Assembly (NCBI RefSeq): GCF_002355415.1
Contig: NZ_AP014936.1
Coordinates: 1,860,001 to 1,924,000 of the forward strand
Length of the DNA stretch: 64,000 bases
Direction: 5' to 3'
Source of the DNA: Sulfurifustis variabilis
Lineage (GTDB): Bacteria; Pseudomonadota; Gammaproteobacteria; Acidiferrobacterales; Sulfurifustaceae
Position numbers and translations under genes: made by a program. The number at the start of each line of letters is the position of its first letter. The stretch's first letter is position 1. The notes beneath the pieces were generated by a model that did not search any database, was not told the DNA's origin, and saw nothing but the letters and a program-made list of their open reading frames with translations. Shown piece by piece: positions 6,320 to 18,789 of the stretch.

Positions 6320-6712
6320 TCACACCATGCTGGCCACAAGCCGCGCCGCGCGCCGGGCCTCGAGACGAAGCAGGCCGAGCTTTGCGTCGTCCCTCGCGAG
6401 CACGGCGAGGATCGCGGCGCTGCCTGCGGCGACCAGCACGGCCACGCCGCGGTCGCCGCGCACCCACGTCTCGTCCACGGCGCCGCGGCCGAATTCCTGT
6501 GCAACGGTGCGCGCGAGCGTGGCGAGCTCTCCGCAAAGAGCGCCGAGGCGGTCCGCGTCGAAGGAGGCGCCGTGCGAGGCCATGGGAAGCCCGTCAAGGG
6601 ACACCACGACGGCGGCCTCCACCCCGGCGCCCGATGCAACGAGCTCGCAGAGCGCCGTCTGCACCGAGCAAGCGCCGCTGGCGTTCTCCGCGCTCGCCGC
6701 CGGTTCGCTCAT
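6320..6712 (-). CDS. Roadblock/LC7-type protein
   Basis: The 130-residue product has the alpha-beta fold pattern of Roadblock/LC7 (MglB-like) domains: an N-terminal helix, a strand with EAAVVVSLDGLPMASHG, a long helix (FDADRLGALCGELATLARTV), then two strands (GVAVLVAAGSAAILAVLA) and a closing helix. Such proteins act as dimeric platforms or GTPase-activating partners for Ras-like GTPases. The start at MSEPAASAEN was chosen because its ATG overlaps the upstream gene's stop by 4 bases. It is the last gene of a long minus-strand run that includes an MglA-like GTPase at 11807-12352. Family assignment is by fold pattern, not a search. Confidence 0.75.
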   Translation of the reverse strand: MSEPAASAENASGACSVQTALCELVASGAGVEAAVVVSLDGLPMASHGASFDADRLGALCGELATLARTVAQEFGRGAVDETWVRGDRGVAVLVAAGSAAILAVLARDDAKLGLLRLEARRAARLVASMV

Positions 6713-7362
6713 TCGTACCGCCTTAGAAGCAGAGCGGCGAGCTCGACGATGGCATCGGATTCCCGGTACACATTGCCACATGTGCCCAGAAGGAGCCGTG
6801 AGCACCCGACATCGAGGGCGCACAGCGTCCAGCCGGGGGATGGTTCCGCTCCCATCGTAAGCTGAAAAACCCCGACGGCTTTCTCGTCCTCAGACACCAA
6901 CGTCCGACAGAGGCCATGCAGCACCTGGGCGAGTCCGGCGACGCGCTGGGCCGTTGCCTCGTCCATGCCAGCCGCGGCAACGCACAAACCGGACTCGTCG
7001 ACCAGCAACGCCTGTCGACGATCGGAGAGCGCCTCGAGCAGCGCCGGCAACCGGTCGCCCGGCGGCTCGTTGCGCTCCGGAAGCGGGGCGACATCCCCGA
7101 TCAGCCAGCCGGCGCGCTGCATCTGGAACAGCACGACGCGCGCCTCACGGCTGTCGGCGCGCCCGGTCCACGCGCACAGCTCCTCGACCGATGGGGCGCG
7201 CCGCGCGCCGTCTCGCAGAAGATGGCGAAGAACCGCGCGTCGGGGATCCCGCGCCCCGGCCGAGAGCGCATACCACGCTCCCGCCGCCGTCGGTATGACG
7301 AACGCGCGCACGGCGCCGCGCACGGAGGCCGCCGTCGTCCGTGGGCCGGCGGAGTCGGTCAT
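6709..7362 (-). CDS. Protein with a winged-helix-like region and a Roadblock-like domain
   Basis: The product has 217 residues and is not a family I can name. Residues 30-85 read like a winged helix (RRAVLRHLLRDGARR, PSVEELCAWTGR, REARVVLFQMQRAGWLIGD). The second half repeats the Roadblock pattern: a helix (LPALLEALSDR), a strand with QALLVDESGLCVAAAGMDE, a helix and two further strands. It resembles the DUF742-like or Roadblock partners that sit beside Ras-like GTPases in actinobacterial conservons. Both neighbours overlap it by 4 bases (ATGA on each side), implying coupled translation. The ATG at 7362 is chosen over a longer frame because it fits those overlaps. Confidence 0.65.
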   Translation of the reverse strand: MTDSAGPRTTAASVRGAVRAFVIPTAAGAWYALSAGARDPRRAVLRHLLRDGARRAPSVEELCAWTGRADSREARVVLFQMQRAGWLIGDVAPLPERNEPPGDRLPALLEALSDRRQALLVDESGLCVAAAGMDEATAQRVAGLAQVLHGLCRTLVSEDEKAVGVFQLTMGAEPSPGWTLCALDVGCSRLLLGTCGNVYRESDAIVELAALLLRRYE

Positions 7363-8945
7363 GTCTCGCGGCCCCGCCCGTCGCCGCCCGCCCCGGGGGC
7401 GTGACAGGCTTCGCAGTGGAGCGAACCGAGGCGCAGGTGGTAGCGGACCTTCGTTCCCGGCGGAATCTCGCCGCCGCAGCTGTCGCAAAGCGAACCGACC
7501 TCGATGAGCGTTTCGCCGAAACCGTCCACGGGAAGCGCGACACCGTCGAGCATGCGATTCCAGGGCGCGGTCTTCACGATATCCCGCCGGAAGCCCTCCT
7601 CCATCCCGCGCCACCGCTGGACCAGCCGCTCGGCCAGGCCATGACGACGAGCGCATTCCATCAACAACGCTTCACGGTAGTCGAAAAGCTCGTCGGAGAT
7701 CACCATCCAGTGATGCGCGTTGCGCGGCCGGTCGCCCAAATAGATTCTCTCGCCCGTGAATATCTGCCGCAGGAAGAGGTACTGCTTTTCAATCGAACGT
7801 TGCATCGTGACGCCGTGGAAGAACGACGACAGCCGCGGGTCGGCGTACACGCGCGTGTAGAAATCGACGAGGATGCTCATGAGCCGCTCGCCGGCGTCGA
7901 GCGCCGCCCACATTTCGGCATCGGGCGCACGATCCGAGTTTCGCCCGCCCCTCCCCCCCGGTGCGGTCGGGATCCCGGCCGTCGCGCTCTCGAACGGGTC
8001 GGCGTGGATAGCCGCGTCGGTCGCTCCCGCCTTGCGGGCAAGCTCGACGCCGGCCCAAACCATGGCCGGAAGGCCGGCGAGGTACACGGCCCAGTTCGAG
8101 AGCCCGGCGTGCGACCGGAACGCGATCGCGTCGGCCCGCCCGGCGACCGCGAACGGCGGCACCTGCGGGCCCGAGACGCAGGGTACGTAACGCAGGTTCC
8201 GATGTGCAACGAGAAGAGCGAGCAACGGGTGGTGCAGGTACAGGCCCGAGGCGTGGCGCACTCCGTGGTAGAGGTGAATCGGGCCGGTATGGCCATTGAG
8301 CAGTGCGTCGCGAACGACGCCGTACAGCGGGGCCAGGCCGGTGCCTGTCCCGACCAGCAGCATCGGTTGGTCCTTGGCGCTCGGCGCGTAGTAGCAGGTA
8401 CCCTCGGGCCCCTGCAGTTCGACTTCATCGTCTGCCGCGAGCTCGTCGAAGATCCAACTGCTCATCGCCCCGCGGAAGACCCGCTTGACGTGCAGCTCGA
8501 GAAAGTAGTCCTTCTGCGGCGCGCTCGCGAGTGAATAGCTCCGGATCAGCCCGTCGTGGCGGCGAAGATTGATGAACTGGCCGGCATGGTAATAGAGAGG
8601 CGTCGCAGGCTCGATCAGGAGGCGACAGATGTCCGGCGCGACGCGCTCCTTCTTGTGGACGACGGCCGGCGTGTAGAGGTCGGCCGCGCGCGGCGGCACT
8701 ATCTCCATGTCTCCGGCGGGGACGCACTTGCAGGGCAGGAAGTAGCCGTGCGCTCGGAGCGTCGGCCTCAGCCCGGACTGGGCCTTTTCGGGCACCTGTC
8801 CGCCGACGCAGCGCAACAGGCAGGTGTGGCAGATCCCGTTGCGACACGAGAACGGCACGTTGACGCCTTGGCGCAGGAACGCATCGATGACGCTCTCGCC
8901 GTCGCGGCAGTCGTACCACTCACCCTCGTAGTTCAATCGCGGCAC
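7359..8945 (-). CDS. Ferredoxin-reductase/truncated globin fusion with C-terminal zinc ribbon
   Basis: Four modules are visible in 528 residues. A plant-type [2Fe-2S] ferredoxin has Cys34, Cys39, Cys42 (CRNGICHTC) and Cys72. An FAD/NAD(P)-binding reductase follows (RSYSLAS for FAD, LVGTGTGLAPLYG for nucleotide), as in oxygenase electron-transfer proteins. Residues about 345-460 are a truncated haemoglobin (VDFYTRVYADPRLSSFF; proximal His candidate 411 or 412 in RNAHHWMVISDELFD). The tail has two CxxC pairs (487/490 and 511/514), a likely zinc ribbon. The fusion would bring NAD(P)H electrons to a haem that binds O2 or NO, suggesting NO detoxification or gas/redox sensing. The GTG at 8945 fits the ferredoxin N-terminus; an ATG at 8996 would add 17 residues. 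Overlaps with neighbours place it inside the Roadblock/GTPase operon. Confidence 0.85.
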   Translation of the reverse strand: MPRLNYEGEWYDCRDGESVIDAFLRQGVNVPFSCRNGICHTCLLRCVGGQVPEKAQSGLRPTLRAHGYFLPCKCVPAGDMEIVPPRAADLYTPAVVHKKERVAPDICRLLIEPATPLYYHAGQFINLRRHDGLIRSYSLASAPQKDYFLELHVKRVFRGAMSSWIFDELAADDEVELQGPEGTCYYAPSAKDQPMLLVGTGTGLAPLYGVVRDALLNGHTGPIHLYHGVRHASGLYLHHPLLALLVAHRNLRYVPCVSGPQVPPFAVAGRADAIAFRSHAGLSNWAVYLAGLPAMVWAGVELARKAGATDAAIHADPFESATAGIPTAPGGRGGRNSDRAPDAEMWAALDAGERLMSILVDFYTRVYADPRLSSFFHGVTMQRSIEKQYLFLRQIFTGERIYLGDRPRNAHHWMVISDELFDYREALLMECARRHGLAERLVQRWRGMEEGFRRDIVKTAPWNRMLDGVALPVDGFGETLIEVGSLCDSCGGEIPPGTKVRYHLRLGSLHCEACHAPGAGGDGRGRET

Positions 8946-9366
8946 TTCCGGATCCCCCCTTTTCGGGCGCGGCAGGCGTCCCGCGGTGCGGTACATGCGC
9001 GTACGTTTCCTTCGGTATGTAAGCGTCCCGGGCGATCTTGAGCAGGGTCGCGAGCGATCGGAAACCGTGTCGCAGGACGACCTGCAGGAGATAGTCTCCG
9101 TTGCACGAGTACTCGCGGCAGACGCGCGGTCGTCGGGTCCAGACGCGGCACAGACTGGTCTGCACGTCGAAGTGCACGCAGTTCCCGCTTTCCGGATCCT
9201 TGTCGACAAATCCCTTGGCGACGCGACCGGGGTTCACGGTCTCCTGCTCATCGGGATCGAGGCGCACGAGCAGGCGACAGCAGAACGTGCCGCACCCCAT
9301 CTCCCGGCCGCGGTCGCAATCCACCCCCACCTCGCAGTCGGGTTTGTCGTTCCCGCCGCTCATCAT
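8920..9366 (-). CDS. YkgJ-type cysteine-cluster protein
   Basis: This 148-residue protein has the pattern of the YkgJ/UPF0153 zinc- or iron-chelating cysteine-cluster family: CDRGREMGCGTFCC near the start, then CVHFD, SLCRVW and RPRVCREYSC. Such proteins bind metal through the scattered Cys residues; biochemical roles are mostly unknown. It overlaps the reductase-globin gene by 26 bases at its 3' end and follows the small membrane-protein gene by 4 bases, so it is part of the same transcript. Two adjacent ATG codons (9366 and 9363) could serve as start. A link to the [2Fe-2S]/haem protein next door, such as metal supply, is inference. Confidence 0.75.
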   Translation of the reverse strand: MMSGGNDKPDCEVGVDCDRGREMGCGTFCCRLLVRLDPDEQETVNPGRVAKGFVDKDPESGNCVHFDVQTSLCRVWTRRPRVCREYSCNGDYLLQVVLRHGFRSLATLLKIARDAYIPKETYAHVPHRGTPAAPEKGGSGSAAIELRG

Positions 9367-9370
9367 TGAT

Positions 9371-9514
9371 TCATCCGTCGGCCGCCTGAAACGCGACGAG
9401 CACCAGCGGGACGATCAGCCAGAGCAGGCCCTTCGCCAGGAAGAACAGGAACGCCACAAACGGGAGTTTGCGCAGCCACTCGTTCAGGTGTTGCTTCGTC
9501 CACGCTCGCGCCAC
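9371..9514 (-). CDS. Small single-helix membrane protein (47 residues)
   Basis: A short gene fills the gap between the Roadblock and YkgJ-type genes. It starts at GTG 9514, with AAGGA 10 bases upstream and 6 bases after the Roadblock stop, and ends at TGA 9371-9373. The product has a basic amphipathic N-terminus (RAWTKQHLNEWLRKL), a roughly 22-residue hydrophobic helix (FVAFLFFLAKGLLWLIVPLV) and a short polar end. No family is recognised. The spacing, ribosome site and clear membrane helix argue for a real gene. It could anchor the Roadblock/GTPase proteins at the membrane, but that is speculation. Confidence 0.6.
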   Translation of the reverse strand: MARAWTKQHLNEWLRKLPFVAFLFFLAKGLLWLIVPLVLVAFQAADG

Positions 9515-9520
9515 GGCCGC

Positions 9521-9931
9521 CTATCCTTTCGGCCTGAATGCCGTCCGCACCACGGCCGCCGTGCGCTTCGCCTCGAGGAAAACCATTCCGAGGTTGATCG
9601 TGACTCTCGCGGCGACGGCGAGCACCGCGTCCGGGCCCGCCTGCACCAGCAGCATCGTGCCGTTCTCTCCCTCGATCAGCACCTGCTTCAATTGCCCGCG
9701 CGCGATCTCCTGCGCAGCCCGGTCGGCGAGCGCAAGCAGCGAGGCGCACATGGCGCCGAACCGGTCCGCATCGATGCCTTCGCCTAGGACCGAGGCGATC
9801 GTGAGGCCGTCACCGGAGATCACGGCGGATGCCTCGATGTCCGCGGAGAGGCTGTTCAGCCGCCGCAAGACCGGTCGAAGCGCCTTCGCCAGCGGATGTT
9901 GTGCCTGACTGTCGTTCACTGCTGCCTGCAT
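9521..9931 (-). CDS. Roadblock/LC7 domain protein
   Basis: At 136 residues this is a one-domain Roadblock/LC7 protein and the clearest of the set. It has a leading helix (LAKALRPVLRRLNSLS), the strand pair IEASAVISGDGLTIASVL, helix IDADRFGAMCASLLALADRAAQEI, strands QVLIEGENGTMLLVQAGPDAVLAVAA and a final helix (INLGMVFLEAKRTAAVV). It resembles MglB-type regulators of Ras-like GTPases; the likely partner is the GTPase at 11807-12352. The next gene, encoding the small membrane protein, starts 7 bases after its stop. Homology to the gene at 6320-6712 is visible in the GAMCASLLAL/GALCGELATL helix, so the two are probably paralogues. Confidence 0.85.
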   Translation of the reverse strand: MQAAVNDSQAQHPLAKALRPVLRRLNSLSADIEASAVISGDGLTIASVLGEGIDADRFGAMCASLLALADRAAQEIARGQLKQVLIEGENGTMLLVQAGPDAVLAVAARVTINLGMVFLEAKRTAAVVRTAFRPKG

Positions 9932-9994
9932 GGTTATCCCTCCGCCCCGGCATCGCGGCCGGTCGGCCGCGATCCGTGAGCCGATCTCCGAGAC

Positions 9995-10405
9995 TTATGC
10001 CGCCTTTTCGATTTCCGGCACGAAACCGCGTGCCTTGGTCAACGCCATGCCGAGGTTGGCCGACTTGCGGCATACGACACCGAGGACATGCTCCTCGTTC
10101 TGCTTGCCGCGGATGAAGATGTGTACCAGGTTGTCGCTGTTCACGATCATCTCGTTGAAGTAGTGATGACCGTCGTCTTTGAGGCCACGCGCCTTCTTGA
10201 ACATCTTCTCGATCATGGTCACGTTCGCCCCCTGGAACATATCGGCCGTGGCGGCGGCGAGCAGCTCCAGGATCTCGGTCGGATGCGAGTCGACCGTCTT
10301 GATTCCGAGCAGCATGCCCGTCGAGAGATCGACATACCCGGCCGCCACGCATTCCGGAACGCCGGCGACGACCTTCTGGAGGTGAGCTTCGAGCGCATTA
10401 GCCAT
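9995..10405 (-). CDS. Roadblock-like protein, diverged
   Basis: A 136-residue protein with a diverged Roadblock-like arrangement: helix MANALEAHLQKVVAGV, strands CVAAGYVDLSTGMLLGIKTVD, a helix with EILELLAAATADMFQG, an inserted loop (MFKKARGLKDDGHHYFNEM), then NLVHIFIRGKQNEEHVLGVVC and a final helix (NLGMALTKARGFVPEIEKA). The long insertion separates it from the other two Roadblock genes, so it may play a distinct platform role. It lies 25 bases downstream of the ABC-phosphatase fusion and 63 bases upstream of the next Roadblock gene, in the same direction. Confidence 0.7.
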   Translation of the reverse strand: MANALEAHLQKVVAGVPECVAAGYVDLSTGMLLGIKTVDSHPTEILELLAAATADMFQGANVTMIEKMFKKARGLKDDGHHYFNEMIVNSDNLVHIFIRGKQNEEHVLGVVCRKSANLGMALTKARGFVPEIEKAA

Positions 10406-10430
10406 TACACGGACTCCTTGATTGGTTTAG

Positions 10431-11810
10431 TTAGTTGGATGGAACCGACTGATCGGCCCGCGTGCGAGCCGTACTGGCGTGCGCCCGGTGCTGCCGGGCG
10501 CGTGAATTGGCGAGGCTCCGTGCGAAGGCCTCGAGAAACTCGACCTGCGCCTCCGACTGCACCCAGCGCGGCTCGATGCATCGCACCGACTCGAGTGCAT
10601 CGAGCGCGCTCCGGCCCTCCCAGATGAGATACGCCGCGAGCACGGTGCCGGTGCGCCCGAGGCCCGCGCGGCAATGCACCGCGACGACTTTTCCGTCCGC
10701 CATGAGTCCCTGCATTTGCCGGCAGAGCTCGACGGCCTGGCGTACCGTGGGCGCCTCCATGTCCGTAATCGGGCTCCAGATCCCGTCTATGCCATAGTCG
10801 CCCAGCAGCTTCGGGTCGACCGGATTACGCGTTAGTGACACGAGCGTGGTAACGCCGACGCGCTTGAGCGCGCTCAGGTCGTAATCGATATCGCGTACCA
10901 CCCCCGGGCGCGGGGTACCCGCGAGCATGCCCTTCTTCATCCAGAGAAACCCGCGCGGCCCGAATGAATCGCTCACGTAGGCGCGCGCTTCGGCGGGCAA
11001 CGGCGGGGGTACCGGCACGCCGGCATCGAGCTCTTCCGGCTTCGCGCCGGGGGACGGCACGACACAACAGCCGCTGCGCACGAATTCGCGCGCGGGCTCC
11101 GAGCGCGGGTCGACGAAGAAATGCTCGGTCGCGCGATGCTCCTGGATCCGGCCGCCGGCGAGCAGCGCCGTGTGGCCGCCGAGGCGATCCGCGTGTTCCT
11201 GGTTGTGAAGCACGATGAGGATAGCCCGGCGCCGGCTCTCCTTGGCGATGTACTCGAGAATCGGCTCGCATTCGCTCGGTTCGAGCCCGCTCGTCGGTTC
11301 GTCGAGACACAGGAGGCGCGGCGAGGCGGCGGCGAGCCGCAGGATGGCGAGGTGGCGCTGCACCCCGAGCGGCAGCTTGACCACCGCCCTTTCCAGACGT
11401 CCGGCGAGATCGTCGAGCCCCGCGTGGTGCAGGAGACGCCGGGCGAGATCGCGCTGCTGCAGAAGCGTGAGCGTGTGCCGCTCCGGCAGGTCGTGAACCA
11501 GGTTCTCGAGCACGCCCGCCATCATCAGGCGCGCGCTCTGCGTTACCATTGCCGGCCGCTCACCGTCACCCAGCGGGGTTCCGGCATACGTCGCGTCGCC
11601 CCACCAGCGGTGCGAGGGGTTCGCGGCATTGAACCCGGCCAGGGTACGGAGCAGCGTCGATTTGCCGGTGCCGGCGGGCCCCATGAGCACCGTCACACCG
11701 CGCTCGGGAACGTCGAGAGTCACGTCGCTCAGGATCACGCGTTCGCCGAACGCGACACCGAAGCCGCGCAACGACAGCGTGTTCGACGCCTGGGCCTGGT
11801 TCGGGCTCAA
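10431..11810 (-). CDS. ABC ATPase fused to a dual-specificity protein phosphatase
   Basis: This 459-residue fusion is unusual. Residues 10-235 are an ABC ATPase: Walker A GPAGTGKST (44-52), Q-loop Gln91, Walker B LLCLDEPTSGL (around 167-175) and H-loop His202. The signature is degenerate (KLPLGVQRHLAIL instead of LSGGQ). Residues about 275-445 form a cyclin-like dual-specificity phosphatase: general acid Asp350 (PITD) and the P-loop HCRAGLGRTG with catalytic Cys380 and Arg386. No membrane helices are present and no permease gene is nearby, so transport is unlikely. An ATP-gated phosphatase acting on a Ser/Thr/Tyr-phosphorylated partner is a reasonable inference. The TTG start at 11810 overlaps the GTPase stop (TTGA). 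Confidence 0.85.
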   Translation of the reverse strand: MSPNQAQASNTLSLRGFGVAFGERVILSDVTLDVPERGVTVLMGPAGTGKSTLLRTLAGFNAANPSHRWWGDATYAGTPLGDGERPAMVTQSARLMMAGVLENLVHDLPERHTLTLLQQRDLARRLLHHAGLDDLAGRLERAVVKLPLGVQRHLAILRLAAASPRLLCLDEPTSGLEPSECEPILEYIAKESRRRAILIVLHNQEHADRLGGHTALLAGGRIQEHRATEHFFVDPRSEPAREFVRSGCCVVPSPGAKPEELDAGVPVPPPLPAEARAYVSDSFGPRGFLWMKKGMLAGTPRPGVVRDIDYDLSALKRVGVTTLVSLTRNPVDPKLLGDYGIDGIWSPITDMEAPTVRQAVELCRQMQGLMADGKVVAVHCRAGLGRTGTVLAAYLIWEGRSALDALESVRCIEPRWVQSEAQVEFLEAFARSLANSRARQHRAHASTARTRADQSVPSN

Positions 11811-12352
11811 CGCTTGAGTCCCGGGTCGAGCATCGTGAGCAGCGCGAGGAGCAGCATCTTGACGTCCTCGCGCCGGCGCGCGTCCACCTCGAACAGCGGC
11901 GGCCTCATCCCGAGCTCGGCGAGTTTCGTATGGTACGTGTACAGTCCCGGCCGGGGCTTCACGTCCATGCGCGTCACCCCGATCACCACCTCGCGCTCCG
12001 AGATGAAGTCCTTGAACGCCGTGAGATAGTGCTCCAGATCGGCCAGCGGGTCCTCGCGTGCATTGTCGATCAGCATGACCAGACCGATACCCCCGCGCGT
12101 CAGGATGTCCCACATGAAATCGAAGCGATCCTGCCCGGGCGAGCCGTACAGATGCACCTTGGCGCCGCCATCGAGATTGAGCACGCCATAGTCCATCGCG
12201 ACCGTCGTGTTGCTCTTGCGGCGCGCCGTCTCGTCCGTTGCGCGCTGCTCGGTACGCACGAGCGGGATGTCGCTGATCGCCTCGATCGCGGTCGTCTTCC
12301 CCGCGCCCACGGAGCCCGCGAAAATGATCTTGTGGTCCGTCGCCATGTTCAT
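11807..12352 (-). CDS. MglA-like small Ras-family GTPase
   Basis: A 181-residue P-loop GTPase. Walker A is GSVGAGKTT (about 13-21). The switch II region reads LYGSPGQDRF (about 68-77), with PGQ in place of the canonical DxxG Asp, as in MglA and related bacterial Ras-like proteins. The base-recognition motif is TRMD (127-130). Such GTPases act as molecular switches for polarity, motility or signalling, with Roadblock proteins as GAP or scaffold. Four Roadblock-type genes lie in the same operon, and the ABC-phosphatase fusion overlaps its stop. ATG 12352 lies 11 bases after the upstream gene's stop. The controlled output is unknown. Confidence 0.9.
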   Translation of the reverse strand: MNMATDHKIIFAGSVGAGKTTAIEAISDIPLVRTEQRATDETARRKSNTTVAMDYGVLNLDGGAKVHLYGSPGQDRFDFMWDILTRGGIGLVMLIDNAREDPLADLEHYLTAFKDFISEREVVIGVTRMDVKPRPGLYTYHTKLAELGMRPPLFEVDARRREDVKMLLLALLTMLDPGLKR

Positions 12353-12363
12353 TGTCGGTTCTC

Positions 12364-13008
12364 CTACAGCCCGGCGATCTTGTTGAGCAGCAGACCCAGC
12401 AGCGGCTGATTGCGGTGCGGTTTAAGGACGGGCTCGACGGGTTTGCGATTGATTGCAATCGCGAGGCCGGCGCACCGGGCGGCGCTGTAGAACGCGTACA
12501 TCTCGGTCCGCGGAACCTTGAGCAGGCGCCCGGCGAAGCCGATCGAGGTGGGATACCGCGTCAGCAGCGCCGCGACGCGCATGGCGCTCGCGGGCGCCGG
12601 CAGGCGCGTGAGGTTCGGCCAGTGGCGGAGCTGCACGACATCGTCGCGAAAGCAGCCCTCCATGAGTCGCCCGTTCGATGCATAGTACCCGGCCTGCCAC
12701 ATCAGCTCGTCCAGATTGCGACCGATTCCGTGCTGCCGCGCGATCGCCTCCGTCTTGGCGGCCCCCAGGCAGCTCACGCGGAAGCGATCGGCCGGCGCCT
12801 GGCACAAGGTCGGCACGTCGCCCGATGCGAAAAACTCGCCGCGGGCGGGAAACAGGATGATCTCGCCCAGATCGCCCCCGTGGATGCGCACATCCTGCCG
12901 GTTCGCAACCGCGCGCCGAAGCAAACCGACGACGTAGTGATCCGGATTGAAGTTCCGCTCTTCTTCGCCCTGTGAGATCCCATGGGCGGGTACGCTTTCA
13001 CCCAGCAT
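12364..13008 (-). CDS. Uncharacterised protein, first gene of the GTPase/Roadblock operon
   Basis: A 214-residue protein that I do not recognise. The middle is mixed alpha/beta (VRIHGGDLGEIILFPARGEFFAS; KTEAIARQHGIGRNLDELMWQAGYYAS). The last 75 residues resemble a winged helix (MRVAALLTRYPTSIGFAGRLLKVPRTEMYAFYSAARCAGLAI) followed by a basic tail (NRKPVEPVLKPHRN). PatA/DUF4388-like proteins near Ras-like GTPases have similar tails, so a scaffold role is possible. The ATG at 13008 has a GGGGG-rich ribosome site a few bases upstream. It is the first gene after the sigma-54 promoter at 13255-13270. Its frame stays open upstream into the broken kinase, but the upstream part is out-of-frame kinase code and is not taken as part of this gene. 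Confidence 0.6.
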   Translation of the reverse strand: MLGESVPAHGISQGEEERNFNPDHYVVGLLRRAVANRQDVRIHGGDLGEIILFPARGEFFASGDVPTLCQAPADRFRVSCLGAAKTEAIARQHGIGRNLDELMWQAGYYASNGRLMEGCFRDDVVQLRHWPNLTRLPAPASAMRVAALLTRYPTSIGFAGRLLKVPRTEMYAFYSAARCAGLAIAINRKPVEPVLKPHRNQPLLGLLLNKIAGL

Positions 13009-13179
13009 TGCGACACCCCCGACTCCGAGACACGCGTTTCGATGTAGTGCAACCGTGCGCGCCTTCCCTTGCGCAGTCCCTGTCCGTGGGTTGAAGCTGG
13101 TCGCGTGATTGAACGCGGAGCAGCAACGCCGAAAACGTCGCGCAATCGCGTTCGAGCAGGATGTGGGCTCTATCGGTGC

Positions 13180-13200
13180 CGACAGCAGCGACTGCTGTCG
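13180..13200 (-). other. Perfect 9-bp inverted repeat in the operon leader
   Basis: Arms CGACAGCAG and CTGCTGTCG are separated by 3 bases. The repeat lies between the sigma-54 promoter (13255-13270) and the first gene of the GTPase/Roadblock operon (ATG 13008), so it would form a stable hairpin in the long 5' leader. It could be an operator, an attenuator, or a target of the ANTAR regulator encoded 3.6 kb upstream. The loop does not match the hexaloop typical of ANTAR targets. The rest of the 331-base gap at 13009-13339 shows no gene. Confidence 0.55.
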
Positions 13201-13254
13201 TCCATCAGAAGCCGCGTGGCGGGCAGTGGGCCATGCAGCGGATGCAGAATCAGC

Positions 13255-13270
13255 TGCAAGGCACGTGCCA
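13255..13270 (-). promoter_or_regulatory. Sigma-54 promoter for the GTPase/Roadblock operon
   Basis: On the minus strand the bases read TGGCACGTGCCTTGCA, which matches the RpoN consensus TGGCACG-N4-TTGCW at every defined position, with the required GG-N10-GC spacing. Transcription would start about 12 bases further on, near 13243, giving a leader of about 235 bases before ATG 13008. It lies between the broken kinase and the operon, where a promoter is expected. No enhancer-binding activator gene is visible in the window. Confidence 0.8.
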
Positions 13271-13339
13271 GGGAGAGAACAGGCGGTTAAGTGCGCGTGC
13301 CGACAGCTAATCGTGAGACTAGAACAGGGAGCGTGACTG

Positions 13340-14802
13340 TCAAGCGAACGCGCGCAACTGCCCTTGCTCGTCCCATGCCACCTCCCCCACCGTCCACTCT
13401 CCCTCTCGGTACAGGCGAAAGCGCGCGCCCTTGGTCGGCAGGAGGGCGCGCACCAGGTCGAGGCCGACGCCGCTGGCGCTCTCGCGCGCAGGTGCAATAC
13501 GCGCACGGTGCCGAGGCGGTTGTCGGGGTAGCCGTGGTTCGTGGCGTTCTGGATGAGCTCGTTCAGGATGAGCGCGATCGGGACCGCCTCGCTCGCCGGG
13601 ACGCAGAGCTTCGCCGTGGCCTCGGTCGGAAGGGACTGGATCTGGTGCGGGGACAGCGCCCGGGCGACGCGGCACACGCCTTCGATGAGGGCGTTGAGCC
13701 CCACGGTTTCCCGCGTCTGGCGCGACAGCAGGTTGTGGACCTCGGCGATGGCGTAGAGCTGGCCGATGGCGCGGGTCAGGACCGGGCCCGCCTGCGGGTG
13801 GTCCTCGCGGTGGCGGCCGAGGAGTCCGATCACGCCCTGGAGGTTGTTCTTGATGCGGTGGTGCACCTCGCGCACGATCACGGCGAGGCGGTCGGCCTCG
13901 GTCTTGGCCTGCTGGTAGCGCTGGATGTTCGCCACCGTGTGCGCCACCTGCACGGCGAGGGACTCGAGGTGCGGGAGGTGCGCGGGGGTGAAGGCGCGGG
14001 GGCGGTGGCTCGCGAGGCAGAGCGCTGCACGGGGCTGTCCGCCCAGGGGCAGGCAGACGCAGGAATGCATTCCTTCCGCCAACGCCTTCCGACTATCCCT
14101 CACCTCCGCGCACAACCGATGGCGTTCTCCGCCGTTCGCAAACCGCATTCCGCACGCCTCGGCTCTCGCTATCGCCAGACGGTGCGTTTGCACCACGTCG
14201 CCTTCGAGCACCACCCGCTCGAACAGGACGTCCTCGCCCTCTTCCCATGCGACCGCGAACTGGTCTAGCGGCAGAACCGGCGCCAGACCGCGGGCGATCC
14301 CTTCGAAAACGCCATCCAGGCTTTTTGCCGTCGCCATGGTTTCGCCGGCGACGGCGAGCACGCGCAGCCACTGGCCCGTCTCGGCCTTGCGCAGTGCCGC
14401 AAGCAGCCGGGCCTCGAGGGCGGCCGGATCGGCGGCGGCCATTACGAAGTCGTCGACCAGCCGTTCGGCGAGAAACGGCATGGCCTGTGCGGCGTCGTCG
14501 ACGATGAGCATCACGCCCGCGGGAGCAGCGACACCCGCTCGCAGCGCGCGCAGGCCATCCAGCGGCTCGCCCGCCAGCGCGTCCCGGGACGCGACAAGCA
14601 GAACCGACGGACGGGTACGCATGGCGACCAGGGCATCGTCCAGTGTCGCGACGCCGCGAAACCCCATTCCCAGCGATTGCAGGACGCTCGGGACGCGGTC
14701 CCCGGTCCGGCCGACGCCGATGACCTCGCCCGACATCCCGCTCGAAGTCGTCACATCCGGCGCCCTGTCATCGGACGGCGCAGTCACTGTCCTCGTGCTC
14801 AT
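13340..14802 (-). pseudogene. Receiver-like/GAF/HisKA_2 histidine kinase broken by a 52-bp deletion
   Basis: The intact design is clear. Residues 1-150 are a receiver-like region without a typical phospho-Asp site, followed by a GAF domain, then HisKA_2 (REVHHRIKNNLQGVIGLL) and HATPase_c up to LILNELIQNATNHGYPDNRLGTVRV. At 13498/13499 a 52-base deletion, compared with the near-identical gene at 17218-18402, shifts the frame. The remaining ATPase part (ARESASGVGLDLVRALLP) sits in another frame ending at TGA 13340-13342. The start overlaps the stop of the REC-EAL gene (ATGA). The shifted frame has no stop before the next gene, so translation would run on through unrelated sequence. An assembly error in the repeat is possible. 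Confidence 0.8.
13379..14010. repeat. Copy 1 of a 632/684-bp repeat encoding a kinase core
   Basis: By eye this block is identical to 17266-17949 except for a missing 52-base segment (17386-17437 in the other copy). It covers the end of GAF, HisKA_2 and HATPase_c of two neighbouring kinase genes whose N-terminal sensors differ. Perfect identity at DNA level, including third codon positions, suggests recent duplication or gene conversion rather than selection on protein. Confidence 0.9.
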
Positions 14803-16472
14803 AGCGGCCCGGGTCTCCCGATATAAAACCCTTGTGCATGATCCACCCCATGAGCGCGAAGCACGGTCACCGTCTGCTCGTCGCTCACGTGCTCGGCGAT
14901 CGTCTGGATGCCCAGGCCGCGCGCCACATCGACCATGGCCGTGACGAACAGGCGGTCGCACGCCGTGCGGGCGAGATCGCGCACGAACGCGCCGTCGATC
15001 TTGATGTAATCCACAGGGAGGCTCCGCAAATAGGAAAACGAACCGAAACCGGCACCGAAGTCGTCCAGGGCGAACCGGATGCCGGCACTCTTGAGCTCCG
15101 CCATGAAGTGCTGCGCCTGCCGCACGTCCCGGAGCGCCGCGGTCTCGGTGATTTCAAAGACGAGACGCGCGGGATCGACCCCCGCGACCCGAACCACTTC
15201 GGCGATGCGACGTTGTAGCTCAGGGCGGCCGAAATGCGCCCCGCTGAGGTTGACGGCGATGAAGCGGTCGGGTGCTTCGACCTGGAGCCCGACGAGGCGG
15301 TTCACCGCCAGCTCGATGACCCGCTTGTCGAGATCCTCGATCAGGCCGCGCCGCTCGGCGAAGGGCAGGAAATCCGCGGGCGTCAGCAGGTTGTCGTGAC
15401 GGTCGCGAACCCGCATGAGCGCCTCGTATCCGGTCACCGCACCGCTCCGCAGCTCCACGATCGGCTGGTAGACGACGTGCACGCCGCCTTCCTCGAGTGC
15501 GTTTCGAAGCACCGATTCCATGGCCTCGCCCTCGGCGCAAGGCTGCACCCGGTCCGTGCCGTAAAGGTACAGCGACCCGGGAACGCCCGCCCGCGCCTCC
15601 TCGAGCGCTGCGTACGCGTGCAAGATCACGGCCCCGGGCGTCGAGGCGCCATGAAACAGGGCCACACCCGCGCGACCGTACAGGCGGCGGTTTCCGGGAA
15701 TCGGGTATGCCTGGATGACGTCGAGCAACGCCCGCCCGGCACGGAGCGCGGACCCCGCATCGGCATCGGGCAACAGGACGAAGAGCTGGTCTTCCCAGAC
15801 CCGCGCGAAGAAATCCTCCTGCCGCAAGCCTGCACGCAGCCGATCGCACAGTGCGGAGATCAGGACCCGGGCCGGCAAGGGTCCTTCACGCTGCACGATC
15901 GCATCGAAACCCTCGATGTCGATGAGCACGCATGCGGCCCCACCGTCCGTTCGGGCGGATGTCGCGATCAGCGCGCCGAGCGCGCGCTCGAGGGCACGCC
16001 GGTCGACGCGCACGTGGGCACCGCCATCCTGGCCCTCCAGACCGCCAGCGGGCGGTGGTACTCGCGCAGGTGCCCAGTTCCCGCGCCGGGCCCGCACGAG
16101 ATTGAGCTCGATCGAAGGCACCAATTGCGCGGAGTCGATCGGTTTCACGAAGTATCCGTTGACGCCGAGGGCGATCGCCCGCTCGATCAGCCCGGGCTCG
16201 TCCGAGGCCGTCAGCATGAGCACCGGGATGTCGGCCTGCCGGCGGATGCGAGCGGCGACATCGAGTCCCGTGAAACCCGGCATCTGATGGTCGAGGACCA
16301 CGAGGTCGGGCGGATCGCTGGCCAGCGCCGAGAGCGCCTCCCGGCCGCTGTCCACGGCCTGCACGCGATAACCCGCCCGCTCGAGCCCGACGGCCAGAGT
16401 GCTCAGGACAAACCGGTCGTCGTCGACGACCAATATCCGACTTCGAGCGGCGGTGTTGTTTGGGTGCGGCAT
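14799..16472 (-). CDS. Response regulator with degenerate GGDEF and active-looking EAL domain
   Basis: A 557-residue protein. The receiver domain has phospho-Asp61 (VVLDHQMPG) and KPID. A GGDEF-like domain lacks the catalytic motif (VWEDQLFVLL where RxGGDEFxxLL is expected). The EAL domain (from about 315) keeps most catalytic residues: YEALMRV, NLSG, EITET, LDDFGAGFGSFSYL, KIDG, AEHVSD and QGFYIGRP. It should hydrolyse c-di-GMP to pGpG under control of phosphorylation, probably by one of the adjacent HisKA_2 kinases. Its stop overlaps the start of the broken kinase, and 119 bases separate it from the ANTAR regulator gene. The PilZ protein at 50639-51022 is a possible c-di-GMP effector elsewhere in the window. 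Confidence 0.9.
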   Translation of the reverse strand: MPHPNNTAARSRILVVDDDRFVLSTLAVGLERAGYRVQAVDSGREALSALASDPPDLVVLDHQMPGFTGLDVAARIRRQADIPVLMLTASDEPGLIERAIALGVNGYFVKPIDSAQLVPSIELNLVRARRGNWAPARVPPPAGGLEGQDGGAHVRVDRRALERALGALIATSARTDGGAACVLIDIEGFDAIVQREGPLPARVLISALCDRLRAGLRQEDFFARVWEDQLFVLLPDADAGSALRAGRALLDVIQAYPIPGNRRLYGRAGVALFHGASTPGAVILHAYAALEEARAGVPGSLYLYGTDRVQPCAEGEAMESVLRNALEEGGVHVVYQPIVELRSGAVTGYEALMRVRDRHDNLLTPADFLPFAERRGLIEDLDKRVIELAVNRLVGLQVEAPDRFIAVNLSGAHFGRPELQRRIAEVVRVAGVDPARLVFEITETAALRDVRQAQHFMAELKSAGIRFALDDFGAGFGSFSYLRSLPVDYIKIDGAFVRDLARTACDRLFVTAMVDVARGLGIQTIAEHVSDEQTVTVLRAHGVDHAQGFYIGRPGPL

Positions 16473-16591
16473 CCCGGACTCCAGGAGCGAAAGCCAGCGG
16501 GGCGGGACGTGGGCCCAAAGCGACTGCGAGAGACGGTGGAGCGCCGGAAGCGGGATGTGGGCCTCGGCGCGGACAGTTTGGTGCGCCGCCC

Positions 16592-17221
16592 TCAGCCGGG
16601 AGGGCCGGCGCTCGAGCGGCTGATCGTATTGACGGCCGCCAGCGCCTCCACGAACTCGCGGGCGACCTCGCGAAGCGGCCGGCGTTGGGCTCGCGCATGA
16701 CCGCGCAGTCGTTCGAACGATTCATCCTGCCCGAGCCCCTCGCGTTCCATGAGTATGCCGACCGCCGTGCTGACGATACGGTTGTGCTCGACGCCGTCAC
16801 GCAGGTTCGTGGTGTCTCGCATGAGCGCGTTGACCTCGGCGAAGCGGGCAAGCGTCGCCTCGATGCTGGGGACCAGCTGATTGACCTCGATGGGCTTCAC
16901 CAGGTAACCGCTGACGCCGAGAGCGATCGCCTCGTGCACGATCGGCTGGTCGTCGTAGGCCGAAAGCATGATGATGGGCCGATGACCGGCGGCGAGCATC
17001 GCCTTCGCCGTATCGAGCCCGCTCATGCCCGGCATGCGCACGTCCAAAATGACGATGCTCGGCGGTTCCCGGCGGTAGATCTCCAGCGCCTCACGGCCGT
17101 TGTCGACCGCATCCACCGGATATCCCCTGGCGCGAAGCCCCTCGGCGAGGGTGGCGAGAACCAGACGGTCATCGTCCACGAGGAGAATGCGAACTGCCGA
17201 TTGCGCGTGTTTCTGCGTCAT
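16592..17221 (-). CDS. Response regulator with ANTAR RNA-binding output
   Basis: A 209-residue protein with a receiver domain (LLVDDDR; phospho-Asp60 in VILDVRMPG; Lys in VKPIE) and a C-terminal ANTAR domain of about 55 residues (NRIVSTAVGILMEREGLGQDESFERLRGHARA). ANTAR proteins bind paired stem-loops in nascent RNA and prevent termination, as in EutV, NasR and AmiR. In EutV/EutW-type systems the partner is a HisKA_2-family kinase. Here such a kinase (17218-18402) overlaps its start by 4 bases, a textbook pair. The RNA targets are unknown; a hairpin at 13180-13200 is one candidate. Confidence 0.9.
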   Translation of the reverse strand: MTQKHAQSAVRILLVDDDRLVLATLAEGLRARGYPVDAVDNGREALEIYRREPPSIVILDVRMPGMSGLDTAKAMLAAGHRPIIMLSAYDDQPIVHEAIALGVSGYLVKPIEVNQLVPSIEATLARFAEVNALMRDTTNLRDGVEHNRIVSTAVGILMEREGLGQDESFERLRGHARAQRRPLREVAREFVEALAAVNTISRSSAGPPG

Positions 17222-18402
17222 ACGTCCTCTTCTTTATAGACGAGGCCACCGGTGCGCGCATAGGTCACCTCCCCCACCGTCCACTCTCCCTCTCGGTACA
17301 GGCGAAAGCGCGCGCCCTTGGTCGGCAGGAGGGCGCGCACCAGGTCGAGGCCGACGCCGCTGGCGCTCTCGCGCGCAGGTGCAATGCCGTCGTTCGCGAC
17401 GCGCAGATACACGGCTTCGGGATCGACGTCGAGGGCGACGCGCACGGTGCCGAGGCGGTTGTCGGGGTAGCCGTGGTTCGTGGCGTTCTGGATGAGCTCG
17501 TTCAGGATGAGCGCGATCGGGACCGCCTCGCTCGCCGGGACGCAGAGCTTCGCCGTGGCCTCGGTCGGAAGGGACTGGATCTGGTGCGGGGACAGCGCCC
17601 GGGCGACGCGGCACACGCCTTCGATGAGGGCGTTGAGCCCCACGGTTTCCCGCGTCTGGCGCGACAGCAGGTTGTGGACCTCGGCGATGGCGTAGAGCTG
17701 GCCGATGGCGCGGGTCAGGACCGGGCCCGCCTGCGGGTGGTCCTCGCGGTGGCGGCCGAGGAGTCCGATCACGCCCTGGAGGTTGTTCTTGATGCGGTGG
17801 TGCACCTCGCGCACGATCACGGCGAGGCGGTCGGCCTCGGTCTTGGCCTGCTGGTAGCGCTGGATGTTCGCCACCGTGTGCGCCACCTGCACGGCGAGGG
17901 ACTCGAGGTGCGGGAGGTGCGCGGGGGTGAAGGCGCGGGGGCGGTGGCTGGAGACGGACATCATCCCGAGGAAGTGGCCGGCGCTGTAAAGCGGGATTCG
18001 CGCACAGGAGCGCATGCCCCCTCGCGCGATCATGAGGTCCTCCGGAAAGCGCTGCTCGCGGCGCAGATCGCGCACGATGTACGCTCTACCAAGCCCCTTG
18101 AGATGCCCAAGGAAGCTTCCGTCCAGCGGGAGTCGGGTATCGCGGTCGACCGTGGACGGGTGATCGGCCGGGCTTTCCACCACGACAAACACCGCCTCGC
18201 CCCGGTCCTCGAGCACGATCATGAACTGGTCGATCGGGGCGACCCGTCGCAGCGCCTCCGCCACCGCTCCGAACGCCTCGCCGTACTCGAGTTGCGACGA
18301 TGCGAGTGCGCTCGCCTCCTGGATGACTTTCATCCAGGCGTAGTTGAGGTCGCGCCGGTGACGCGGCGCCTTCGTGGCGCGCTTTCGCTTTACCGCTCCC
18401 AC
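17218..18402 (-). CDS. GAF-HisKA_2 histidine kinase, partner of the ANTAR regulator
   Basis: A 394-residue soluble kinase. A GAF domain covers about 30-165 (ASSQLEYGEAFGAVAEALRRV to LGMMSVSSHRPRAF). HisKA_2 follows with phospho-acceptor His201/His202 in REVHHRIKNNLQGVIG, then HATPase_c (LNELIQNATNHGY, ANDGIAPARES, GVGLDLVRALLP). The stop overlaps the ANTAR regulator start (ATGA), so the two are a co-translated pair. From about base 17949 down to 17266 its DNA is identical to the broken kinase at 13340-14802, while the sensor half is not, so this is a recent domain exchange or duplication. The signal is unknown; GAF suggests a small ligand or redox cue. Confidence 0.9.
   Translation of the reverse strand: MGAVKRKRATKAPRHRRDLNYAWMKVIQEASALASSQLEYGEAFGAVAEALRRVAPIDQFMIVLEDRGEAVFVVVESPADHPSTVDRDTRLPLDGSFLGHLKGLGRAYIVRDLRREQRFPEDLMIARGGMRSCARIPLYSAGHFLGMMSVSSHRPRAFTPAHLPHLESLAVQVAHTVANIQRYQQAKTEADRLAVIVREVHHRIKNNLQGVIGLLGRHREDHPQAGPVLTRAIGQLYAIAEVHNLLSRQTRETVGLNALIEGVCRVARALSPHQIQSLPTEATAKLCVPASEAVPIALILNELIQNATNHGYPDNRLGTVRVALDVDPEAVYLRVANDGIAPARESASGVGLDLVRALLPTKGARFRLYREGEWTVGEVTYARTGGLVYKEEDV
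17266..17949. repeat. Copy 2 (complete) of the kinase-core repeat
   Basis: The intact partner of 13379-14010. It holds the 52 bases (17386-17437) missing from copy 1, which encode the stretch of the ATPase domain between the N-box and the ARESASGVGLDL segment. No short direct repeat precisely bounds the missing piece. Confidence 0.9.
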
Positions 18403-18789
18403 TGTCGCCTCCGTCGTTCGTGCATCAGCAGCCGTGCCGCGGCCCGCCGGGCGGATGCGGCTCTCTCTTATTCGAAATTGAGCGGGAATCGTAGGAGAAC
18501 AAGGCGCAACGCCTCAGGCCCGGCCGCCGCTTGGGGCCATTCTCATCGCATCCGCAACGGAGCTGCGGATCTCGACTTTCCCGGTTGACGGCTTCCCCCG
18601 TTCGTTCCTGAGATTCTTGTTCTTGGGAACGTTGTTATGAATTCTAATTCATCTGTTCGCCCGCGCCCCGCATGCCTGATTGCACAGGTCGGGTAAAGTC
18701 AATGACCGCGGCGGTGCGCGAGGTCGAAGTGCCGGCCGCGTGCACCGGCGGCAACGATTTGGGCCGGGATCGATGACGGCCGTCAAGGA
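18403..18789. other. Divergent intergenic region with an AT-rich palindrome
   Basis: The 387-base gap separates two divergent kinase genes. It contains the inverted repeat ATGAATT-CT-AATTCAT at 18637-18652, which stands out against the GC-rich background and is a plausible operator or promoter element. GTTC-TTGG-GAAC lies just before it. No RNA gene or convincing small protein is seen. Confidence 0.45.

What the first reader, a model, noticed from the sequence alone, without database searches (positions are those of the whole stretch)
6320..13270. Ras-like GTPase/Roadblock operon with redox-globin and ABC-phosphatase modules behind an RpoN promoter
Ten tightly packed minus-strand genes combine one MglA-like GTPase, four Roadblock-type proteins, an ABC ATPase-phosphatase fusion, a flavo-ferredoxin-globin fusion, a Cys-cluster protein, a small membrane protein and an unknown wHTH-tailed protein. 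GTPase plus Roadblock is known from MglAB and actinobacterial conservons; the gas/redox and phosphatase fusions beside them are not part of any system I know. A plausible reading is a membrane-linked switch that couples O2, NO or redox state and protein phosphorylation to a polarity or motility output. The neighbouring kinases could supply input.
Basis: partly seen in the sequence, partly recalled or inferred. Interest (0 to 1): 0.88.

Follow-up and report, generated by a model that had tools for sequence, protein, structure and literature searches.

The report
Conserved G-protein, phosphatase and globin operon
Ten tightly packed bacterial genes join a Ras-like molecular switch and its partner proteins to a haem-and-redox protein and an unusual ATPase-phosphatase, and much of the same set recurs side by side in many other bacteria, so it is probably one uncharacterised signalling system rather than a chance cluster.

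Summary
Ten minus-strand genes (13008-6320, no gap over 63 nt) encode an MglA-type GTPase, Roadblock proteins, an ABC-ATPase/DSP fusion, a 2Fe-2S/FAD/NAD/globin fusion, a Cys-cluster protein, a 47-aa membrane protein and a wHTH protein, behind an exact RpoN-type site. D, without a Roadblock Pfam hit, is predicted to be a Roadblock (Z 16.9 to MglB). The core (A-GTPase-Roadblock) matches the published Group 3 MglA systems. New is the extension: ABC-DSP (C) and Roadblock D are adjacent in 72 of 79 D-selected loci (five of the seven exceptions are cut by contig ends), and the globin occurs in 0 of 34 GTPase loci lacking C-D but in 23 of 28 complete D loci that also have the GTPase. Two other genomes (L096, L126) have all ten genes in the same order. 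The paper listings I saw describe no such cluster. Most likely mechanism: a Roadblock-scaffolded G-protein switch reading haem/redox state, with an ATP-gated phosphatase, acting on type IV pili; linkage is shown, mechanism and output are inferred. The RpoN site is not conserved in relatives, and the adjacent kinases are not conserved partners.

The parts
13255..13270 (-). RpoN (sigma-54) type -24/-12 site, TGGCACG-N4-TTGCA
   Evidence: exact match; 9 exact in genome, control 3; rpoN present; not generally conserved
12364..13008 (-). gene A: 214-aa protein, small alpha/beta domain + winged helix (the Group 3 'unknown protein' without a receiver-like N-terminal part)
   Evidence: no Pfam/NCBIfam hit; AF2 pLDDT 90.4; wHTH matches at residues ~98-190; ORF of 273 aa or less in 20 of 35 relatives
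11807..12352 (-). gene B: MglA-type small Ras-like GTPase
   Evidence: single match in the genome; P-loop and PGQ motif each in 42 of 43 B proteins from loci with C
10431..11810 (-). gene C: ABC-type ATPase fused to dual-specificity phosphatase (TTG start overlapping B stop)
   Evidence: HCX5R[S/T] in 80 of 82 DSP domains, LSGGQ in 0 of 80 ABC domains
9995..10405 (-). gene D: divergent Roadblock/LC7 protein, near-constant neighbour of C
   Evidence: AF2 pLDDT 88.5; Foldseek 3kye_A 8.7e-8; Z 16.9 to MglB 6hjm_D, 118 residues, 2.0 A
9521..9931 (-). gene E: Roadblock/LC7 (MglB-type)
   Evidence: Robl_LC7 4.3e-18; joint E/J profile matches CvnB5, MglC, LAMTOR2, MglB chains
9371..9514 (-). gene F: 47-aa protein with one hydrophobic stretch, probably membrane (GTG start)
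   Evidence: sequence; relatives at the same place in L096, L126 and four other loci
8920..9366 (-). gene G: CxxCxxCC putative metal-cluster protein
   Evidence: PF03692 2.8e-7; in 16 of 79 D-selected loci
7359..8945 (-). gene H: 2Fe-2S ferredoxin - FAD - NAD(P) reductase - truncated globin - C-terminal CxxC...CxxC (GTG start inferred; ATG at 8996 possible)
   Evidence: proximal His and Tyr B10 each in 37 of 40, Cys pairs in 35 of 40 distinct globin domains
6709..7362 (-). gene I: wHTH-like N-terminal part + probable Roadblock
   Evidence: Robl_LC7 9.1e-4, below cut-off; hhalign to E/J 56%, E 1.1e-4; wHTH-like part by eye only
6320..6712 (-). gene J: Roadblock/LC7 (MglB-type)
   Evidence: Robl_LC7 8.6e-17

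Best explanation
It is an extended Group 3-type MglA G-protein system. B is the GTP switch. Roadblock proteins E/J are its GAP-type regulators, with D, I and the winged-helix protein A as scaffold or accessory subunits. C is not a transporter but a nucleotide-gated phosphatase held by D. H reads or consumes O2/NO and passes redox state through FAD and 2Fe-2S, with G and the C-terminal Cys pairs as metal or redox sites. Haem/redox state is proposed to change the B-Roadblock complex and hence B-GTP and C phosphatase activity; the output is most likely the type IV pilus machine. SHOWN: gene content, families or predicted folds, conserved catalytic motifs, recurrent linkage. INFERRED: GAP activity, gas/redox input, D-C contact, phosphatase gating, pilus output.
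For: C-D adjacency 72 of 79, and 7 of 7 from the C side. All ten genes in the same order in L126 and L096. Globin in 0 of 34 GTPase loci without C-D (27 of these have 3.5 kb or more on both sides) and in the one with C-D; in 23 of 28 complete D loci with GTPase against 4 of 28 without, Fisher 5.6e-7. Globin with or without the reductase part but still in the locus (15 of 40 without). Catalytic motifs kept in C, B and H. Roadblock fold of D. Precedent: a globin fused to Roadblock/LC7, HGbRL (PMC4476040, passages read). T4P: own genome four PilT-family proteins, no flagellin match; GTPase genomes 28 of 28 PilT against 127 of 157, p=0.0045. An orphan mglB allele in Snodgrassella, which has a Group 3 mgl locus, was linked by its authors to altered T4P-dependent motility (PMC11112851, passages read).
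Against: No biochemical evidence. Many loci (Comamonadaceae, Myxococcota, one Planctomycetota MAG) have C-D with no GTPase in the locus (a GTPase elsewhere in those genomes was not searched for), so C-D may work alone. 5 of 28 complete loci with GTPase and D have no globin. Loci are related, so p values are too small. Flagellin is also frequent with the GTPase (17 of 28 against 77 of 157, counted by hand).
Confidence: 0.4

Rival explanations
1. Transcription switch: protein A (wHTH) is a DNA-binding output and B-GTP controls its binding, as proposed for Group 3 systems by Wuichet and Sogaard-Andersen.
For: A ends in a winged helix and several longer homologues carry an N-terminal extension; published proposal with a receiver-like N-terminus and wHTH (PMC4316618, section 18).
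Against: The window's A has no such extension, and the A ORF is 273 aa or less in 20 of 35 relatives. The best structural matches are winged helices of SEA/GATOR1 chains and FAM91A1, which to my recall are not established DNA binders; transcription-factor wHTHs in that list score lower (Z under 5).
Confidence: 0.25
2. Co-expressed stress operon: G and H are NO/O2 detoxification or Fe-S repair enzymes that share a promoter with a G-protein module but do not feed it.
For: H has the parts of an NO dioxygenase (globin plus reductase); one promoter-like site upstream.
Against: The globin follows the C-D plus GTPase context (0 of 34 against 23 of 28), also as a separate and sometimes oppositely oriented gene (L147, L151, L168), which shared transcription alone would not explain.
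Confidence: 0.25
3. C-D is an independent NTPase-phosphatase module that merely travels with different GTPases.
For: C-D without GTPase in many loci; a D homologue lies among four dynamin-family genes and a Ser/Thr kinase on a Ruegeria plasmid, without C.
Against: In a quick GTPase tree the C-D label is strongly clustered (7 changes against a shuffled mean of 30; near-copies and four duplicate rows add to this), as for a stable joint system.
Confidence: 0.2

Closest known systems
Group 3 MglA systems (Wuichet and Sogaard-Andersen 2014, PMC4316618)
   Same: wHTH protein next to an MglA-type GTPase and MglB-type Roadblock proteins in beta/gamma-proteobacteria; among 34 GTPase-selected loci without C-D, A is found in 25, E in 21, I in 12
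   Different: adds ABC-DSP fusion, divergent Roadblock D, ferredoxin-FNR-globin, CxxCxxCC and small membrane protein; window A lacks the receiver-like part
MglA/MglB (MglC, RomY) polarity module of Myxococcus xanthus
   Same: GTPase plus more than one regulator; D folds like MglB, the wider D profile is nearest MglC by sequence (weak, E 0.029)
   Different: RomR, Frz and SgmX partners were not searched for; redox and phosphatase genes are extra
Actinobacterial conservons (CvnA-D)
   Same: GTPase + Roadblock operon; E/J profile matches CvnB5 (3leq)
   Different: no CvnC-type family among the nine proteins scanned and no histidine kinase among the ten genes
HGbRL of Methylacidiphilum (globin-Roadblock/LC7 fusion, PMC4476040, passages read)
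   Same: globin coupled to a Roadblock domain
   Different: there a direct fusion with another globin class; here a separate truncated-type globin fused to ferredoxin-FNR
Flavohaemoglobin Hmp
   Same: globin + FAD + NAD domains
   Different: domain order reversed, Bac_globin-type globin, extra 2Fe-2S and C-terminal Cys pairs; 55.6 bits against cut-off 432

Membership tests
Group 3 MglA system | MglA-type small GTPase with P-loop and PGQ motif | tested here: met
   window sequence; 42 of 43 B from loci with C for each motif
Group 3 MglA system | adjacent MglB-type Roadblock gene(s) | tested here: met
   E and J Robl_LC7
Group 3 MglA system | adjacent conserved unknown protein with C-terminal winged helix | tested here: met
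Group 3 MglA system | receiver-like N-terminal region of that protein ('typical' in the paper) | tested here: not met
   window A is 214 aa and aligns with the C-terminal part; longer forms exist in relatives such as L098, L142
Group 3 MglA system | place in the published MglA tree | not tested
   own tree only
Roadblock/LC7 (gene D) | Roadblock fold | tested here: met
   predicted model:
Roadblock/LC7 (gene I) | Roadblock domain | tested here: inconclusive
   Pfam below cut-off, hhalign 56%; not folded
MglB GAP | stimulation of GTP hydrolysis | not testable with these tools
   -
ABC transporter ATPase (gene C) | Walker A and B | tested here: met
   77 of 80 each
ABC transporter ATPase (gene C) | LSGGQ signature | tested here: not met
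   0 of 80
ABC transporter ATPase (gene C) | partner permease gene | tested here: inconclusive
   none among the ten genes; not searched further
Dual-specificity phosphatase (gene C) | HCX5R[S/T] active site | tested here: met
   80 of 82
Truncated haemoglobin (gene H) | proximal His, Tyr B10 (positions assigned by recall) | tested here: met
   37 of 40 each
Flavohaemoglobin Hmp | NCBIfam equivalog cut-off | tested here: not met
   55.6 bits against 432
Actinobacterial conservon | CvnC-type gene in the operon | tested here: not met
   no such Pfam hit among the nine proteins scanned; that CvnC has a Pfam family is recalled
Rag-GATOR1 type GAP (NPRL2/3) | longin domain plus winged helices | tested here: inconclusive
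   winged helix resembles (Z 9.3, 74 residues); longin domain not tested apart

The most novel reading that the evidence does not exclude
A bacterial counterpart in logic of the eukaryotic Rag-Ragulator-GATOR1 switch: a Ras-like GTPase on a Roadblock platform, regulated by winged-helix subunits (A, I) resembling those of the Npr2/Npr3 GAP, but reading haem and redox state through H and sending it on through an ATP-gated dual-specificity phosphatase, C.
Probability: 0.12. Interest if true: 0.9.

Novelty: new variant of a known kind. Interest (0 to 1): 0.62.

Why it matters
Inputs and effectors of Group 3 MglA systems are, as far as the papers I saw show, unknown. A conserved, separable cassette (ABC-DSP + Roadblock D, with haem-globin reductase) beside them gives concrete candidates for both and makes the question testable in culturable hosts among the hits (Derxia gummosa with A-B-C-D-E, Marinobacter with A-B-C-D-E-globin, Comamonas with C-D alone in the locus). 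It would also be a protein phosphatase tied to an ABC ATPase domain outside transport.

Tried and rejected
RpoN control as a general feature: rejected. One of 65 distinct upstream regions (L099) has 11/12 or better (one search gave 1 of 69 with four duplicates, 0.14 expected); at 9/12 there is no enrichment (6 of 33 including the window, 6.6 expected). The genes after the other eight exact sites gave no shared theme by eye.

ANTAR antitermination of the long leader by the nearby RR-ANTAR (16592-17221): no Rfam match up to E 1 in 12900-19000; an RR-ANTAR/HK pair lies near the operon only in L098, a lone RR in L185. Left open, not claimed.

Kinase input: the nearest HK gene (14802-13340) shares a run of 171 identical residues with the HK at 18402-17218 but its ATPase domain is cut and shifted; unlikely to signal.

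Transporter reading of C: rejected (LSGGQ in 0 of 80; no permease among the ten genes).

Literature: the listings showed no description of an ABC-DSP/Roadblock or Fdx-FNR-globin/Roadblock cluster. Several listings were capped (12 of 1,743 papers listed; 12 of 172; 20 of 47; 10 of 15; 10 of 25), and the library holds no bioRxiv set and few subscription papers, so absence from print is not shown.

First C-based scan of genome contigs confirmed nothing; the D-profile scan worked. A first annotation under-counted B because overlapping ORFs hid it; one search replaces those counts. Five loci (L097, L100, L101, L103, L104) are the same contigs as L157, L159, L173, L135, L149; searches counted them twice (e.g. 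38 of 41 globins, 85 of 87 DSP), and searches give the counts without them. L142/L144 and L179/L180 are close relatives and were both kept. Foldseek gave no match at E 0.001 or better for A.
Full report
WHAT IS THERE. The ten genes A-J lie on the minus strand from 13008 to 6320 without a gap over 63 nt and with several 4-nt overlaps, as expected for one operon. A is a 214-aa protein without family hits; B a small Ras-like GTPase; C an ABC-type ATPase joined to a dual-specificity phosphatase; D and E 136-aa proteins; F a 47-aa protein, probably membrane; G a CxxCxxCC protein; H a 2Fe-2S ferredoxin, FAD, NAD and truncated-type globin fusion ending in two Cys pairs; I a wHTH-like plus weak Roadblock protein; J a Roadblock protein. 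B is the only match of its kind in the 3.96-Mb genome. An exact sigma-54 type site lies at 13270-13255, one of nine in the genome against three for the reversed control, and rpoN is present.

ROADBLOCK CLAIM. E and J are Robl_LC7 by Pfam, and their joint profile matches the solved CvnB5, MglC, LAMTOR2 and, weakly, MglB chains. D has no Roadblock Pfam hit; its model (30 sequences, pLDDT 88.5) matches Roadblock structures: Foldseek 3kye_A 8.7e-8, Z 16.9 over 118 residues at 2.0 A to MglB. I is likely but not proven. So three of the four are secure.

KNOWN CORE. Wuichet and Sogaard-Andersen (PMC4316618; abstract, first of four parts of Results and section 18 read) describe Group 3 MglA systems of beta/gamma-proteobacteria: an unknown protein with receiver-like N-terminus and wHTH, MglA and one or two MglB. 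Of 185 genomes of the class, 28 (own included) have a relative of B. In 35 fetched loci, 34 lack C-D; among these A is found in 25, E in 21, I in 12. The window's A lacks the N-terminal part that relatives such as L098 and L142 have; the A ORF is 273 aa or shorter in 20 of 35 D-selected loci.

THE EXTENSION. A profile of D found 282 relatives; the best 79 loci were fetched: many Gammaproteobacteria MAGs, Rhodocyclaceae, Gallionella, Methylotenera, Derxia, Marinobacter, Comamonadaceae, Myxococcota, one Planctomycetota. C is within 600 nt of D on the same strand in 72 of 79. Of the seven exceptions, D lies within 200 nt of the contig start in four (L128, L134, L136, L172); in L202 a C cut by the contig end does follow D (E 8.5e-26); L194 has C about 1 kb off; L193 has A-B-D and no C. 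From the other side, the seven strong C relatives among 60 relatives of the genome all have D beside them. A+B+C+D occur together in 34 of 79. L126 and L096 have all ten genes in the window's order; L130 lacks only F.

GLOBIN TRACKS THE JOINT SYSTEM. The H-type globin occurs in 0 of 34 GTPase loci without C-D (27 of them with 3.5 kb or more on both sides of B) and in the one with C-D. Among D loci with at least 3.5 kb on both sides it occurs in 23 of 28 with the GTPase and 4 of 28 without (loci are related, so the Fisher value of 5.6e-7 is only a guide). It may be fused to ferredoxin-FNR or lack the reductase (15 of 40 distinct domains), yet stays in the locus. Proximal His and Tyr B10 are each kept in 37 of 40 and the C-terminal Cys pairs in 35 of 40. 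In a quick GTPase tree of 89 rows (four of them duplicates) the C-D label needs 7 changes against a mean of 30 for shuffled labels.

C IS NOT A TRANSPORTER ATPASE OF THE USUAL KIND. Walker A and Walker B in 77 of 80 each, the DSP active site in 80 of 82, but the LSGGQ signature in 0 of 80. A nucleotide-gated phosphatase is the simplest reading (inference).

OUTPUT. The genome has four PilT-family proteins over the cut-off and no flagellin match at E 1e-15. Over 185 genomes, 28 of 28 with B have PilT against 127 of 157 without (p 0.0045); flagellin 17 of 28 against 77 of 157 (counted by hand). Genome size confounds this, as 14 of the 20 listed PilT-less genomes are 2.1 Mb or smaller. In Snodgrassella, which has a Group 3 mgl locus, an orphan mglB allele was linked by its authors to T4P-dependent motility (PMC11112851, passages). 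A pilus output is therefore likely, not shown.

A SIDE LEAD. The winged helix of A (pLDDT 90.4) has as its nine highest VIA-align rows chains of SEA and GATOR1 complexes (best Z 9.3 and 9.1 over 74-76 residues) and FAM91A1 (7.2); Foldseek itself gave nothing at 0.001, a best Z of 7-8 is common by chance, and the rows are few distinct proteins. That the chains are Npr2/Npr3-type subunits is my recall; PMC3521125 (passages) describes Npr2/Npr3 as longin proteins with tandem wHTH domains and relates longin to Roadblock. This suggests A and I may be GAP-type subunits rather than DNA binders; it is a lead only.

VERDICT. Real, conserved, and an extension of a known G-protein kind that the listings I saw do not describe. 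Novelty lies in the C-D pair and its tie to a haem-redox protein; mechanism is open.

Noticed in passing
13340-14802 (-): Histidine kinase gene sharing 171 identical residues in a row with the kinase at 17218-18402 but with a shifted, shortened ATPase domain: probably a decayed gene made by duplication or gene conversion.
   Followed up: partly
16592-18402 (-): RR-ANTAR plus GAF/HisKA_2 kinase pair resembling, to my recall, EutV/EutW-type antitermination pairs; a similar pair precedes C-D-D-A-B-E in L098.
   Followed up: partly
14799-16472 (-): Receiver-GGDEF-EAL protein between the two kinases: a c-di-GMP enzyme close to the operon.
   Followed up: no
L209:5995-6396 (Ruegeria sp. B32 plasmid): D-type Roadblock homologue (42% identity) among four dynamin-family genes and a Ser/Thr kinase gene, with no C among the nine genes tested; five Ruegeria plasmids have a D match, one was looked at.
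   Followed up: partly
L160, L174, L181, L182, L183, L192, L202: In these loci (Ottowia, Extensimonas, Hydrogenophaga, Acidovorax and others) D comes before C, still on one strand.
   Followed up: no
L163:6283-7314 (-): Ferredoxin-like part joined to the globin without the FAD/NAD reductase, divergent from A.
   Followed up: no
L102:8551-9861 (-): C homologue split over frames: a broken gene or assembly error in one relative.
   Followed up: no
L105:4142-5158 (-): A PilT-family gene (G165:C8) about 2.5 kb from a C-D pair that has no GTPase in the locus.
   Followed up: no
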